A stretch of DNA of 64,000 nucleotides, from assembly GCF_003991905.1 (NCBI RefSeq), contig NZ_RSCL01000027.1:62001-126000 (forward strand). Direction: 5' to 3'. The notes beneath the pieces are model-generated. The model was not told the DNA's origin and made no database searches. It worked only from the letters and a program-made list of their open reading frames with translations. Position 1 is the stretch's first letter. The number at the start of each line of letters is the position of its first letter. The translations under genes and the position numbers were made by a program. This stretch comes from Dulcicalothrix desertica PCC 7102. Its GTDB lineage: Bacteria; Cyanobacteriota; Cyanobacteriia; Cyanobacteriales; Nostocaceae. Of the stretch, positions 39,193 through 44,908 are shown in pieces.

Positions 39193-40494
<1,302 letters not shown>

Positions 40495-41034
40495 TTAAAT
40501 CCAATGTTTGGGGTAAGTTCTTTTTGCTACTAAATTATTGAAAGCATATGTGCAGGAGAGTATAATTATTGACCCTGCTAAGACTGGAGCAAATAGAAAT
40601 CCCCACGAAGCGTGACTCATTGCTCCAACTAGTGCTACTGCTCCACCTGGTGGATGAAGTGTTTTTGTTAGCAGCATTAATTTAATTGCTACTGCAACAG
40701 AAGCTGCTTGAACCCACGGAGCTGACCCAAATAAATGAACCAAAATAATACAGGTTAAAGCTCCGAGAATATTCCCTCCGATTACGTTACGAGGTTGTGC
40801 AAGAGGACTTTCTGGTACCGCATATAACAGTACTGCACTTGCTCCGAAAGGCGCCGCTATTAATGGATAGTTTGTATGTAATGATAGGTATACAAGAGAT
40901 GCTATACCTAAAAAGCTGCCTATGCCTGAGAGTAAAATCTGTCTATAGGAGAAGCTTGGCTGATGTACAGAACTTCTATAGAGTTTTAAAAAATATCGTT
41001 TTACTTTATCTGACTTTTGCATAAATATTGCCAT
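40495..41034 (-). CDS. HPP-family membrane protein
   Basis: 179 residues (a start at the ATG of MQKSDK, 41022, is equally likely). Four membrane spans: ILLSGIGSFLGIASLVYLSL, PLIAAPFGASAVLLYAVP, GALTCIILVHLFGSAPWV and GFLFAPVLAGSIIILSCTYA. The hallmark HPPGG is present (TKTLHPPGGAVALVGA), with APFGASAVL and PLAQPRNVIGG, so the family is secure. HPP proteins have been linked to nitrite transport in chloroplasts and cyanobacteria; the substrate here is not proven. It lies downstream of the TnpB-like gene on the same strand. Confidence 0.9.
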   Translation of the reverse strand: MAIFMQKSDKVKRYFLKLYRSSVHQPSFSYRQILLSGIGSFLGIASLVYLSLHTNYPLIAAPFGASAVLLYAVPESPLAQPRNVIGGNILGALTCIILVHLFGSAPWVQAASVAVAIKLMLLTKTLHPPGGAVALVGAMSHASWGFLFAPVLAGSIIILSCTYAFNNLVAKRTYPKHWI

Positions 41035-41339
41035 TGCCTAAATCGCTCACGGGGGCGCCTTCATTGGTTGATGGTGCGTGATTTCCTTTGTATTCTGTCA
41101 TGATAACTTAATATTTGAATCAAATGTAGCTAAATATACAGAATTACTGTTTGACTTTATTGATAGCAATAATAATTAGAAGCAATGCTAGCCAATACTA
41201 CATTACAACCAGTTTGTAGATTCACTGCGGGCTTGCCTGTCTACACCTAAAGAGCGCATTGAGCAGCACTATACTAGACTTAAAAGAAGTAACAACTTCA
41301 TCCAAATCTATAAATGTGAGTAATCAGCATGTGGTATGA

Positions 41340-41506
41340 GTAATTCGGGATAAACCGGACACTCGCTTTGTGATCCTGTTTGATACACCAATCAGAAAGA
41401 CGACGGAACTAGCCGCTACTTTATACGATGGTATCTCGTTACCCTTCGGGTCAACCAGTTTGCCACGACGGAAACCGACCGTGGCAACAGGTTGACCGAT
41501 GTAACA
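41340..41506 (-). ncRNA. Candidate guide-RNA scaffold (omegaRNA-like) 3' of the TnpB-like gene
   Basis: Directly downstream of the TnpB-like stop, in the direction of its transcription, lie nested hairpins: an 8-bp outer stem GGTCAACC/GGTTGACC (41449-41456 with 41490-41497), an 8-bp inner stem TTGCCACG/CGTGGCAA (41460-41467 with 41480-41487) and a small CGGAAACCG at 41469-41477. Next comes CCCTTCGGG (41442-41450) and, further on, GGAC-loop-TGATCC (41357-41376) with a single bulge. TnpB and IscB systems make their RNA from exactly this position. The 3' boundary and any guide cannot be fixed by eye. Confidence 0.5.
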
Positions 41507-42964
41507 CTACGCACAAGACCAGGCAGGAATCACCACTTTCCCTTTACCCACAGGCTCCGGTAGCCAAACAACACAACCTCTGGGCAAACCTGCATTTTTA
41601 AAAACTACAGGCTTTTCAAATTTTGCAGCCAGGTATTTTAAACCAATGTTTCTAGCTGCATTTTCACCAGAACATAATATTTTACCATCTGGCGTTTTAA
41701 CTAATTTTCCTAAACCTGAATCACTCCATAAATAAAGGTTAAGTACACCAACTTGTGAACCTCTTAAACATTTACCACCATTGTGCGAATCCGTAATGCT
41801 AGTAAATGCTGGGTTAACTCTAACAGTATAAATAGAGTGCCTGTTTAAAGCTTTCTGCTCAACTCGTTTTTGTATTTTCTTTGCAACCCAAAACGAACGT
41901 TTTATGTTGCTTCGACGCGAGTACTTACCACGTTGAGGCTTTAAAGTTTTGAGATTTTCAAAAACAATTACATTACAATTGTGGTCATTAGCAATTTCCA
42001 CAATTGAGTGTGATATTGTTTCAATAAGTTCCTTTTCTAAATTTTTAATTCGCTGCCATAACTTGGAACATAAGTTTTCAGGAGGCAACACGCCCAACTC
42101 TGTTTTAGTATTAGTCAAACTTTTTGCTTTGGCAATCTTACCTAGATAGCGCTTCCTAAGATGATGGAGTCGATTGTTTCCTTTTATCCGTAGATTGGCT
42201 AACTCTACAACAACGCTCGTATCTTCGTACCCTTCTAATACCTTGCCTACAACTATCGGGTCGTCTAAGTTGAGATCAATGCTTAGAACTCGGAGCTTAC
42301 CATAAGCTTTTATATAGTCTACTAACTTTCCTTTTGATAGCGTATTTTTCTGAATTACCCAAACAAGTTTTAGTCTACTTTCATCATAAATTAAAGAGAA
42401 AGTTCCTTTGACGTAATCAGGTGGTAATTCACGACACTTATAACTAACTTTCTGAAATTGCCATGTTTTTCCTGTCCAAAGTTTTACAACTAGGGTGTCT
42501 CCAGTATCGTCTTTAAACATACCTGAATAAACCTGAATTGGAAAATTAGTGGATTGTGGTAAAATTGGCGGTTTGCCTGCCTTCTTTTTTAACCTTGTAC
42601 GTTTTTTGAGTGTATGACAGGTCTTTGACCTTTCAATTCGTTTCATCCATCGCTCAAAATTCGTGTACCAAGACTTGACAACACCTGCAGCTTTTTTTAT
42701 TGCAGCACGTCTCAGGTCTTGAGGAATACGAGCAGCACTAAGAACTGGCTCGCTAGTTATTCGTTTTTCATAAACATTGTAAAGCGAATCTGAGGATGTG
42801 GAAAGAAATAATTTTAGATTCGATGACATTTGAGAAACATAAAACATCACACAGTCGTTGAACAGTAACTGTGTCAGCTTAACATACTCAGGTGTTGCTG
42901 TTTCTACAGTTGCTAAAATTGACTCGTTGATTTGAAAGTGACCTTTTTGTTTCTTCAATGCCAT
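41507..42964 (-). CDS. TnpB-like RNA-guided protein with altered RuvC-III site
   Basis: 485 residues, slightly longer than a typical TnpB. The N-terminal half (1-215) is basic and helical with a beta-rich wedge-like part (GTFSLIYDESRLKLVWVIQK). The RuvC-like half has RuvC-I LRVLSIDLN with Asp230 and RuvC-II CNVIVFENLKTLK with Glu336. The RuvC-III block ENAARNIGLKYL (434-445) is intact, but the residue expected to be the catalytic Asp is Gly433 (CSGEN instead of DADxN). The zinc ribbon keeps only Cys399 and Cys431. No TnpA, CRISPR or Tn7-like genes adjoin. Either nuclease-dead or using a relocated acid such as Asp391 or Asp415. Structured DNA follows at 41340-41506. Confidence 0.85.
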   Translation of the reverse strand: MALKKQKGHFQINESILATVETATPEYVKLTQLLFNDCVMFYVSQMSSNLKLFLSTSSDSLYNVYEKRITSEPVLSAARIPQDLRRAAIKKAAGVVKSWYTNFERWMKRIERSKTCHTLKKRTRLKKKAGKPPILPQSTNFPIQVYSGMFKDDTGDTLVVKLWTGKTWQFQKVSYKCRELPPDYVKGTFSLIYDESRLKLVWVIQKNTLSKGKLVDYIKAYGKLRVLSIDLNLDDPIVVGKVLEGYEDTSVVVELANLRIKGNNRLHHLRKRYLGKIAKAKSLTNTKTELGVLPPENLCSKLWQRIKNLEKELIETISHSIVEIANDHNCNVIVFENLKTLKPQRGKYSRRSNIKRSFWVAKKIQKRVEQKALNRHSIYTVRVNPAFTSITDSHNGGKCLRGSQVGVLNLYLWSDSGLGKLVKTPDGKILCSGENAARNIGLKYLAAKFEKPVVFKNAGLPRGCVVWLPEPVGKGKVVIPAWSCA

Positions 42965-43278
42965 ATATTAACCACCTCTCTATTTAGCAATATTTATTTA
43001 GATATTTATAAGTATATATTTTTTTGACAAAAAAACAATATTTATCTAATATTTAAATATCTGATTGAAGTTGCCAAGAATTGATAAGTTTTATTAATTT
43101 TTAATGAAAGGGCACTTGTTCTGATATTTCATCATATCAAAATTTCAAGTTTTAAAATGTGGACTATAACTATTCATTCTATAGAACTATTGAGAAAATT
43201 ATAGTCAGATGCTTGCATGACGCACACAATTATGTAAACTTTACTCAAAGCAATGTAGAATTTGTAATTTTGTATTAA
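42965..43278. other. AT-rich region upstream of the TnpB-like gene with direct repeats
   Basis: Two direct repeats start CAATATTTAT: 42988-43010 (CAATATTTATTTAGATATTT) and 43036-43060 (CAATATTTATCTAATATTTA). They lie just upstream of the gene and may be a transposon left end or an operator. A minus-strand TATACT at about 43012-43017 could be a -10 box. The remainder holds nothing recognisable. Confidence 0.45.
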
Positions 43279-43548
43279 AGTCAGTCCGTTTTACTCGGAT
43301 ATTGTCCAATATGTACAGAAAAAGCTCTATCTAGTACTACGTCTGAGGTAATTGAGATACCAGCGGAATTAACGCCATTTTTGCTTCCTAGCGCAGTTCA
43401 AAACCGTCTTCAATTTTTGTTAGACCGTCAGGATGCAGGCGAACTGTTGAGTGACGAAGAACGTCAAGAAGCAGAAGGATTAGTCGAATTGTCAGATTTT
43501 TTATCTCTACTTCGCTTAAGGTCACAGCGAGTTACGAAAAAACTATAA
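43279..43548 (+). pseudogene. Small conserved gene lacking a start, partner of HNH
   Basis: The open frame has no ATG, GTG or TTG after the TAA at 43276-43278. It reads EVIEIPAELTPFLLPSAVQN, RLQFLLDRQDAGELLSDEER and QEAEGLVELSDFLSLLRLR, resembling small acidic proteins of cyanobacteria that precede nuclease or toxin genes (PFLLPxxVQxRLQxLLDRQ). It ends TAA directly before the HNH start codon. Probably decayed at the 5' end. Confidence 0.5.
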
Positions 43549-43797
43549 ATGTCAACATCAATTTCAGCTTCTTTGCGTAGATTAGTTATTCAAAGGGCGG
43601 GTAATCGCTGCGAGTATTGCGGTTTATCTCAAGCAGGACAAGAAGCGACATTTCACATTGACCATGTCACACCTGTTGTGGCAGGTGGGCAAACGGTAGA
43701 AAATAATTTAGCGCTTGCTTGTGTATCCTGCTCATTACATAAATCTGCTCGACAAATGGTTAAACACCCGCAAACAGGCAGGCATCCACCACCATAA
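43549..43797 (+). CDS. HNH nuclease, short
   Basis: 82 residues. HNH motif: RAGNRCEYCGLSQ, FHIDHVTPVVAGGQTVENNL and LACVSCSLHKSARQ, with both CxxC pairs and the catalytic His in DH. Full-length relatives normally carry 30-80 more residues after HKSAR; here the tail is a short Pro/His-rich KHPQTGRHPPP and a stop, so the gene may be truncated though the catalytic core is complete. The preceding gene ends at the base before this ATG, so translation is coupled. Confidence 0.75.
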   Translation: MSTSISASLRRLVIQRAGNRCEYCGLSQAGQEATFHIDHVTPVVAGGQTVENNLALACVSCSLHKSARQMVKHPQTGRHPPP

Positions 43798-43804
43798 AAC
43801 TTTA

Positions 43805-44857
43805 TTATTGTGACATCACAACTTCTTTTTCCTCGATAACTTCGTAGCCTGTAGCTAATTTGTCAATTGCTTTGTCGAGTAATTCAACTCCTTGCTTTAC
43901 GGTTTCTATTTTATTCAACTCACCACGTAAATCAGAGGCGCCAACAAATCCCTTTGCGTACCAAGCCATATGTTTACGCGCTTGGTAAATACCGCGTTCT
44001 CCTTTATATTCATACAACGCTTCTAAATGTTCTTTGGCACATTCGAGTCTTTGTATAAGTGTTGGCGCCGCTAATATTTCCCCTGTTTTTAAAAAATAAT
44101 CAATTTCTCCCACTAAAAACGGATATCCCAAAGTACCGCGCGAACACATTACACCATCGGCGCCTGTTTCTTCCAAGCATCGCGCTGCTGACTCTACAGA
44201 AAATATATCCCCATTGGCAATTACTGGAATATCTAATACTCGTTTTACCTTTCCTATCCATTCCCAACGCGCATTACCTGTATAACCTTGGGCACGTGTA
44301 CGACCATGTATAGTTATCATTTGGGCGCCTGCATCTTGCATACGAAGAGCAAAATCTAGTATCGTAATCTCTGCATCATCCCAACCAATGCGTGTTTTTA
44401 CGGTGACTGGTACATCAACTGCCTTAACTATTTCTCTTACTATTTCTTCTGCTACTTCTGGTTGTCGTAACAGCGAAGAACCCCCACCCTTGCGAGTAAT
44501 TTTATTTACCGGACACCCCATATTAATATCCACAGTATCGGCGCCTTCGGCAACCGCTTTTTGTGCAGCTTCAGCTAAAAAATGTGGACGGCAATCAAAT
44601 AATTGAATACTTACCGGGCGTTCGTTCGGGTCAATTTCCATAATAATGGGAATTTCCTTTAAATGCTGCAACCTAGAAGCGTGAACCATCTCGGTATATA
44701 ACATTGACTCTGGAGCATAACGACGAACTAGGCGCCGGAACACTAAATCTGTTACACCAGATAAAGGAGATTGAAGCACACGACTGTTGATTTCTAAGGC
44801 GCCTATTTTTAGAGGTGTAGCGAGTCTCGCTTTGAGATGAGGAGTTAATTGCAGCAT
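43805..44857 (-). CDS. tRNA-dihydrouridine synthase (DusB-like)
   Basis: 350 residues. FMN-dependent TIM-barrel enzyme that reduces uridines in the tRNA D-loop. Seen: SPLSGVTDLVFRRLVRR, TEMVHASRL, NMGCPVNKITRKGGGSSLLR with the catalytic Cys, VKTRIGWDD, TIHGRTRAQGYTG, NGDIFSVE and a C-terminal helical RNA-binding domain (KHMAWYAKGFVGASDLR). Length and motifs are standard. It converges on the HNH gene. Confidence 0.93.
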   Translation of the reverse strand: MLQLTPHLKARLATPLKIGALEINSRVLQSPLSGVTDLVFRRLVRRYAPESMLYTEMVHASRLQHLKEIPIIMEIDPNERPVSIQLFDCRPHFLAEAAQKAVAEGADTVDINMGCPVNKITRKGGGSSLLRQPEVAEEIVREIVKAVDVPVTVKTRIGWDDAEITILDFALRMQDAGAQMITIHGRTRAQGYTGNARWEWIGKVKRVLDIPVIANGDIFSVESAARCLEETGADGVMCSRGTLGYPFLVGEIDYFLKTGEILAAPTLIQRLECAKEHLEALYEYKGERGIYQARKHMAWYAKGFVGASDLRGELNKIETVKQGVELLDKAIDKLATGYEVIEEKEVVMSQ

Positions 44858-44908
44858 AAAAAGATAAATATAAAATTCACATAGCTTCTATATTTTTACA
44901 TTACGTAG

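What the first reader, a model, noticed from the sequence alone, without database searches (positions are those of the whole stretch)
41507..42964. Lone TnpB-family protein with the RuvC-III catalytic Asp replaced by Gly
Seen: RuvC-I Asp230 (LSIDLN) and RuvC-II Glu336 (VFENLK) are present and the RuvC-III block ENAARNIGLKYL is intact, but the DADxN position reads CSGEN (Gly433), and the four-Cys zinc ribbon is reduced to two Cys. Known: nuclease-dead TnpB relatives have been adopted as RNA-guided repressors (TldR) and Cas12k is a dead relative that guides transposition; some TnpB groups instead relocate a catalytic acid. Inference: this gene may be an RNA-guided DNA-binding protein in a cyanobacterium.
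Basis: partly seen in the sequence, partly recalled or inferred. Interest (0 to 1): 0.78.

Follow-up and report, generated by a model that had tools for sequence, protein, structure and literature searches.

The report
Cyanobacterial transposon TnpB lacking RuvC-III Asp
This is the RNA-guided protein of a small mobile cyanobacterial transposon (IS607 type) in which a whole group of relatives has lost one of the three acids that normally cut DNA; it is not a lone repressor gene, and whether it still cuts, perhaps with a moved acid, is a direct laboratory question.

Summary
The gene sits in a ~2.0-kb element (41331-43340) whose ends are shared by copies at other sites; two related genomes hold the empty site. 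Relatives at ~30% identity, 7 of 32 examined, have a full-length IS607 serine-recombinase tnpA upstream; window-type copies have none and would move in trans. Target motif and right end share AC or TC; no target duplication. The right end holds a conserved, covarying RNA scaffold that stops where variable flank begins. The loss is clade-wide: 29 of 58 tree rows lack the Asp (25 Gly, 2 Ala, 2 Ser) while Asp230 and Glu336 are 58/58; 28 of those 29 have Asp at 234, against 1 of 29 with the Asp. I read it as an RNA-guided transposon protein with a remodelled RuvC site, more likely catalytic (about 0.5) than dead (about 0.35); geometry could not be measured. A domesticated TldR-like repressor or Cas12k-like role is not supported. 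New variant of a known kind.

The parts
41331..43340 (-). IS607-type mobile element, copy without a transposase gene
   Evidence: Same end points in six copies with both ends and different flanks; one of them (L030) carries an insertion, one (L019) assembly gaps. Empty site in G006 (98%) and G005 (89%), no gap at the junction, small indels elsewhere
43341..43344 (-). Target motif AGAC kept at the insertion site; presumed TAM; its last two bases AC match the right end ...CCAC
   Evidence: AGAC at the left end of all six window-type copies with that end; present in the empty sites
43225..43340 (-). Left end; TTGGACAAT and AACGGAC motifs read by eye
   Evidence: First 60 nt 80-92% identical between five copies, rest of leader 49-74%
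41507..42964 (-). TnpB-family protein, 485 aa, RuvC-III Asp replaced by Gly
42275..42277 (-). Asp230 codon (RuvC-I acid)
   Evidence: Asp in 58 of 58 rows
42263..42265 (-). Asp234 codon, candidate relocated third acid (230+4)
   Evidence: Asp in 28 of 29 rows without the RuvC-III Asp, 1 of 29 with it
41957..41959 (-). Glu336 codon (RuvC-II acid)
   Evidence: Glu in 58 of 58 rows
41666..41668 (-). Gly433 codon at the RuvC-III Asp position
41331..41442 (-). Right end and presumed reRNA (omega RNA) scaffold, ends ...CATACCAC
   Evidence: Last 100 nt 92-99% identical between five copies; covarying pairs
41311..41330 (-). Presumed guide: first 20 nt of host flank
   Evidence: Conservation stops at 41331; guide use inferred from known TnpBs
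41441..41494 (-). About 54 nt extra hairpin between stop codon and reRNA
   Evidence: Absent from the other right ends shown; z -4.6; its core is in 4 of 338 fetched loci, all holding this same copy
43341..43548 (+). Gene interrupted at its start codon (ATG = 41329-41330 plus 43341; MSEVIEIPAELTPF...)
   Evidence: Joined-flank reading; uninterrupted in G006 and G005

Best explanation
The gene is the TnpB of an IS607-type transposon of filamentous cyanobacteria; the window copy has no tnpA and would be moved in trans. It makes a reRNA from the right end whose guide is the flanking host DNA, and the protein-RNA complex recognises AGAC plus the guide, that is, the empty donor site. Its RuvC site is remodelled: Asp230 and Glu336 are kept, the RuvC-III Asp is gone, and Asp234 in the turn after strand 1 (perhaps helped by residue 232) supplies the missing ligand, so that the complex still cuts or nicks the empty site and helps the transposon persist. 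Shown: element, ends, target motif, empty sites, IS607 tnpA beside relatives, clade-wide loss, invariant D and E, co-occurring Asp234, RNA covariation. Inferred: movement in trans, guide use, TAM, cleavage, role of Asp234.
For: Shared end points, dispersed copies; L042/L043 identical over 2,323 nt at two sites. Empty sites. Full-length IS607 tnpA upstream in 7 of 32 genes without the Asp (L014, which gave the seed, L040, L042, L043, L053, L067, L076), part of one in L083, L078, L054; none in 9 outgroup genes, L084 or L085, with one tnpA as seed; TnpA has Resolvase and MerR-type domains. Same dinucleotide at target motif and right end in the 19 copies whose ends I placed. reRNA: 95.2% of cells paired, 5 pairs changed on both sides, reached by 4 of 500 shuffles. 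Purifying selection. D230 and E336 58/58; Asp234 28/29 against 1/29. L085 (partial, 306 aa) has both Asp234 and the canonical Asp, a possible intermediate. Model: Asp230 ends strand 223-230, Asp234 in the 231-236 turn, Glu336 ends strand 332-336, Gly433 near the start of helix 432-448.
Against: No coordinates were available, so the Asp234 distance to Asp230/Glu336 is unmeasured and may be too large. L078 has Asn at 234 (Asp at 232). Glu254 is also invariant (28/28 filled rows), so invariance alone does not prove catalysis. Asp at +4 occurs with the canonical Asp in L085, and L219 reads DLNDD with it. 6 of 7 single right ends fold no better than shuffles (z -1.5 to +0.7; L014 -3.7). Fold matches include binding-only relatives (Cas12m2, dCas12f). 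None of the 10 window-, L035- and L051-type copies has a tnpA hit upstream, so their IS607 label rests on kinship and ends.
Confidence: 0.5

Rival explanations
1. Nuclease-dead but transposon-borne: the complex binds the guide-matched empty site (or the element ends) without cutting and helps the element by blocking or steering the TnpA reaction or by silencing genes next to insertions.
For: RuvC-III Asp replaced by three different small residues (25 Gly, 2 Ala, 2 Ser); degraded zinc ribbon; reRNA and ends still conserved. Cas12 lineages with inactivated RuvC that act by binding are known (PMC12669027, passages).
Against: Asp230 and Glu336 kept in 29 of 29 rows without the Asp, unexpected if catalysis had long been dispensable; Asp234 goes with the loss in 28 of 29.
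Confidence: 0.35
2. TldR-like domesticated RNA-guided repressor of a host gene.
For: A catalytic RuvC residue is lost, as in TldRs (PMC13418256, passages).
Against: Window-type copies lie at different sites with the same ends; empty sites exist; L042/L043 are identical at two sites; the sequence in guide position differs from copy to copy because it is the insertion flank. Neighbouring genes of all copies were not annotated.
Confidence: 0.05
3. Cas12k-like or other CRISPR-associated effector.
For: Cyanobacterial, RuvC changed, matches to several Cas12 profiles.
Against: No repeat array in 40400-44900; none of the 14 PADLOC matches is named Cas12k; the recombinase beside relatives is of IS607 type.
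Confidence: 0.03
4. Decaying passenger gene with no function.
For: This copy lacks tnpA and carries an extra hairpin; several relatives are broken by stops or truncated.
Against: Intact 485-aa frame and purifying selection on protein and right end.
Confidence: 0.05

Closest known systems
IS607-family TnpB (ISXfa1, ISFba1)
   Same: TnpB with a serine-recombinase tnpA in relatives, right-end RNA, no target duplication, matching dinucleotide (PMC10711439, PMC11061315, PMC6188088: passages seen)
   Different: AC or TC instead of GG; RuvC-III Asp lost; degraded zinc ribbon; window protein scores 56.7 bits against NCBI's cut-off of 100 for guided TnpB
Pro-Fanzor TnpBs and Fanzors
   Same: Cyanobacterial IS607 TnpBs with a rearranged RuvC site (PMC10711439, passages)
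   Different: They have DPG in RuvC-I and a moved RuvC-II Glu; here the Glu is in the canonical place, RuvC-I reads mostly DxDLD or DxNLD, and the RuvC-III Asp is lost
TldR
   Same: TnpB relatives with RuvC changes
   Different: Many TldRs are tied to non-transposon genes (PMC13418256, passages); these elements have mobile-element ends and empty sites
Cas12m and Cas12k
   Same: Cas12 proteins that act by binding (Cas12m: start of abstract of PMC11013384 in the listing; Cas12k recalled)
   Different: CRISPR-guided; no repeat array found beside this gene

Membership tests
IS607-family transposon | Serine-recombinase TnpA encoded with TnpB | tested here: inconclusive
   Met for 7 of 32 related genes without the Asp (domains of one); not met for the window copy nor for any of the 10 window-, L035- and L051-type copies in about 1,500 bp upstream
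IS607-family transposon | No target duplication; exchange over a matching dinucleotide | tested here: met
   Empty sites. AC/AC in 12 and TC/TC in 7 copies whose ends I placed; L044's left end and the TC-type ends were placed partly by analogy within the group. Not the GG known for IS607
TnpB (RNA-guided nuclease) | TnpB/Cas12f-type fold with RuvC domain | tested here: met
   Model pLDDT 76.2; Foldseek E 4.8e-13 to Cas12f, 3.3e-9 to ISFba1 TnpB, 5.9e-7 to ISDra2 TnpB, but query-normalised TM-scores of the rows listed are 0.26-0.43, and the input alignment held TnpBs
TnpB (RNA-guided nuclease) | D-E-D catalytic triad | tested here: not met
   D230 and E336 kept, third Asp is Gly433
TnpB (RNA-guided nuclease) | Right-end omega RNA with flank as guide | tested here: inconclusive
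   Conserved, covarying scaffold with abrupt end; single folds mostly not better than shuffles; no RNA data
TnpB (RNA-guided nuclease) | RNA-guided cleavage | not testable with these tools
   Needs biochemistry
TldR | Association with a non-transposon gene, loss of mobility | tested here: not met
   Different flanks with the same ends, empty sites
Pro-Fanzor | DPG in RuvC-I and alternative Glu near the zinc ribbon | tested here: not met
   No DPG in the 60 rows; Glu at the canonical place in 58 of 58
Cas12k (type V-K CAST) | CRISPR array and Tn7-like genes nearby | tested here: not met
   No array in 40400-44900; five neighbour proteins scanned are HNH, Dus, TM_HPP, short-chain dehydrogenase and a WG/TPR/M50 protein

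The most novel reading that the evidence does not exclude
A clade of cyanobacterial IS607-type TnpBs moved its third catalytic acid from RuvC-III into the RuvC-I turn (Asp234), through an intermediate with both, giving an active RNA-guided nuclease or nickase with a D-D-E arrangement; this would be a second kind of active-site relocation in cyanobacterial IS607 TnpBs besides the pro-Fanzor Glu shift.
Probability: 0.35. Interest if true: 0.72.

Novelty: new variant of a known kind. Interest (0 to 1): 0.52.

Why it matters
If the site is active, it is a natural, compact RuvC variant with a relocated acid, possibly a nickase, and a test case for how catalytic sites move. If it is dead, an RNA-guided binding protein has stayed on mobile elements in ten genus groups, which would mean that guided binding without cutting can maintain a transposon. 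Either answer bears on why transposons keep TnpB.

Tried and rejected
D392 and D415 as the third acid: not conserved. Glu244 (26/29) and Glu254 (28/28) are conserved, but by my own strand-register estimate from the model's strands they lie far from Asp230; not measured. Residue 431: H 16, C 5, D 4, N 3, S 1 in the 29 rows without the Asp, N in 22 of 29 with it; a possible partial ligand in some members, but Cys in the window. IS200/IS605 membership was considered because the motif is not duplicated; dropped after IS607 tnpA turned up beside relatives. First structure job with five close sequences failed (pLDDT 37.7). Viral contigs gave one clade member, on one contig (L132; none). Open frames across joined flanks: found in 8 of 10 copies but expected often by chance; of nine such peptides two spanning the junction match short-chain dehydrogenases (L026 8.4e-05, L035 1.4e-08), two match weakly (L033 AAA 0.0046, L036 MFS 0.0044), L076 matches Resolvase mainly on one side, four match nothing. 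Single loss of the Asp: the best tree needs two changes and 0% of 200 bootstrap trees need one, yet AU does not reject one (p 0.055); L084 is a long branch and L085 partial. Literature: the 2023 TnpB/Cas12 classification (looked up) and the TldR paper are not held, a PubMed-id look-up, also found nothing. So I cannot say that this clade is unreported; in eight searches of the held library I saw no listed title or abstract start that describes it.

Full report
What is there. The ORF at 41507-42964 (-) encodes 485 aa. It matches TnpB/Cas12 profiles below their cut-offs: guided_TnpB 56.7 of 100 bits, Pfam TNB domain 15.1 of 26.3 bits; in PADLOC, which shows no cut-offs, Cas12f at 1.6e-13. Of 29 relatives scanned, 23 match guided_TnpB at E <= 0.001.

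It is a transposon gene. The window lies in an 11.4-Mb genome; the named loci encoding close relatives are Calothrix. The same genome holds a 92% copy broken by assembly gaps, a 69% copy, a contig-edge copy and more distant ones. In the genus, 6 of 7 genomes including the own have some match; that of G004 is a weak canonical one. Copies share the same two end points, window 43344 and 41331. The four bases AGAC at 43341-43344 belong to the target: two genomes of the genus carry the uninterrupted site, 98% and 89% identical to the joined flanks, with AGAC and no gap at the junction, and there the interrupted gene regains its ATG (MSEVIEIPAELTPF...). There is no target duplication. Joined flanks of L026 and L035 give dehydrogenase sequence running through the junction. 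Some relatives moved recently: L042 and L043 are identical over 2,323 nt at two sites.

Which family. IS607 tnpA (Resolvase plus MerR-type HTH) lies upstream of L014, L040, L042, L043, L053, L067 and L076 in full length, with pieces at L083, L078 and L054: 7 full-length of 32 genes without the Asp, searched over about 1,500 bp (606 bp for L054) with the L014 tnpA as seed; no hit at 9 outgroup genes, L084, L085, or the 10 window-, L035- and L051-type copies. The family search gave the same pairs, for example G000:C44, G003:C3, G193:C1. One canonical relative, L029, lies about 1 kb from a Y1 tnpA (G004:C6), and a distant relative in G194:C99, whose RuvC-III I did not read, lies near another. Published IS607 elements lack inverted repeats and target duplications and recombine at GG (PMC6188088, PMC10711439, passages seen). 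Here the last two bases of the target motif equal the last two of the right end: AC in 12 copies (window, L019, L025, L026, L030, L033, L035, L036, L011, L042, L043, L044), TC in 7 (L014, L040, L076, L077, L080, L081, L082). The left end of L044 and the TC-type ends were placed partly by analogy; copies with one unread end (L031, L041, L051, L052, L062, L063, L073) are not counted. L076 appears to sit inside another IS607-type tnpA.

Guide RNA. The last 100 nt of the right end are 92-99% identical between five window-type copies, more than third codon positions (70-84%) and most of the leader (49-74%). On 12 right ends the consensus structure has 21 pairs; 95.2% of cells pair (0 of 500 shuffles), five pairs change on both sides (4 of 500), and sliding the partners drops pairing to 36-54%; the structure came from the same alignment, which favours it. 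One hairpin position is G-C, C-G and U-A in different subfamilies. Of seven single right ends folded, six are not clearly more stable than shuffles (z -1.5 to +0.7), L014 is (z -3.7). Guide use is inferred.

The missing acid. In the tree of 58 rows (full-length ORFs plus the partial L085), 29 keep Asp at 433 and 29 do not (25 Gly, 2 Ala, 2 Ser). Asp230 and Glu336 are 58 of 58. Asp at 230+4 is in 28 of the 29 without the RuvC-III Asp (exception L078, Asn) and in 1 of the 29 with it (L085); position 230+2 is Asp (20) or Asn (9) in the former, Gly in 26 of the latter. The rows without Asp come from ten genus groups and one viral contig. They lie in a starred 31-row clade that also holds two canonical members, L084 (long branch) and L085; the best tree needs two changes, 0% of 200 bootstrap trees need one, but AU does not reject one (p 0.055). 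In the 29-row clade alignment, which includes L084 and L085, three of 35 acid-majority columns are invariant: 230, 336 and 254. The clade is uncommon: matches at E <= 1e-20, canonical relatives included, in 13 of 217 family, 33 of 388 order and 6 of 386 phylum genomes, with few candidates scored per genome, so these are lower bounds.

Structure. The second model (34-row alignment, pLDDT 76.2; 80-89 around the motifs) has Asp230 at the end of strand 223-230, Asp234 in the next turn, Glu336 at the end of strand 332-336 and Gly433 near the start of helix 432-448. Foldseek ranks Cas12f first, with Cas12g, ISFba1 and ISDra2 TnpB, Fanzor2, and also Cas12m2 and dCas12f, at low global TM-scores. Coordinates were not in the box, so the deciding distance is not measured.

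Judgement. An IS607-type TnpB with a guide RNA: I would put near 0.9. Remodelled but still catalytic: about 0.5; dead but useful to the transposon: about 0.35. Invariant D and E over this divergence, with an Asp gained nearby, tilt me to catalysis. The precedent in the same setting is the pro-Fanzor group, cyanobacterial IS607 TnpBs with a moved Glu (PMC10711439, passages seen); here another acid is concerned. I recall, without having the text, that published TnpB surveys report groups with rearranged or lost sites, so this clade may be listed there.

Noticed in passing
window 41441-41494: A ~54-nt near-perfect hairpin sits between the tnpB stop codon and the reRNA in this copy only; its core occurs in 4 of 338 fetched loci, all of them this copy.
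   Followed up: partly
window 43341-43797 (+): The interrupted gene (MSEVIEIPAEL...) is followed by an HNH endonuclease gene (43549-43797). The first gene is uninterrupted in G006 and G005; 70-71% matches to its coding part lie in G003 and G006.
   Followed up: partly
L110 and L114, around 1501: Short matches (43-46 nt) to the left end alone, in G006 and the own genome; I saw no right end or gene in the stretch read.
   Followed up: no
L019 1400-3598: The 92% copy in the own genome is broken by runs of N with a repeated stretch, possibly an assembly artefact.
   Followed up: no
window protein residue 254: Glu254 is invariant in the clade alignment (28/28 filled rows) in a stretch where canonical relatives have a gap in the alignment; role unknown.
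   Followed up: no
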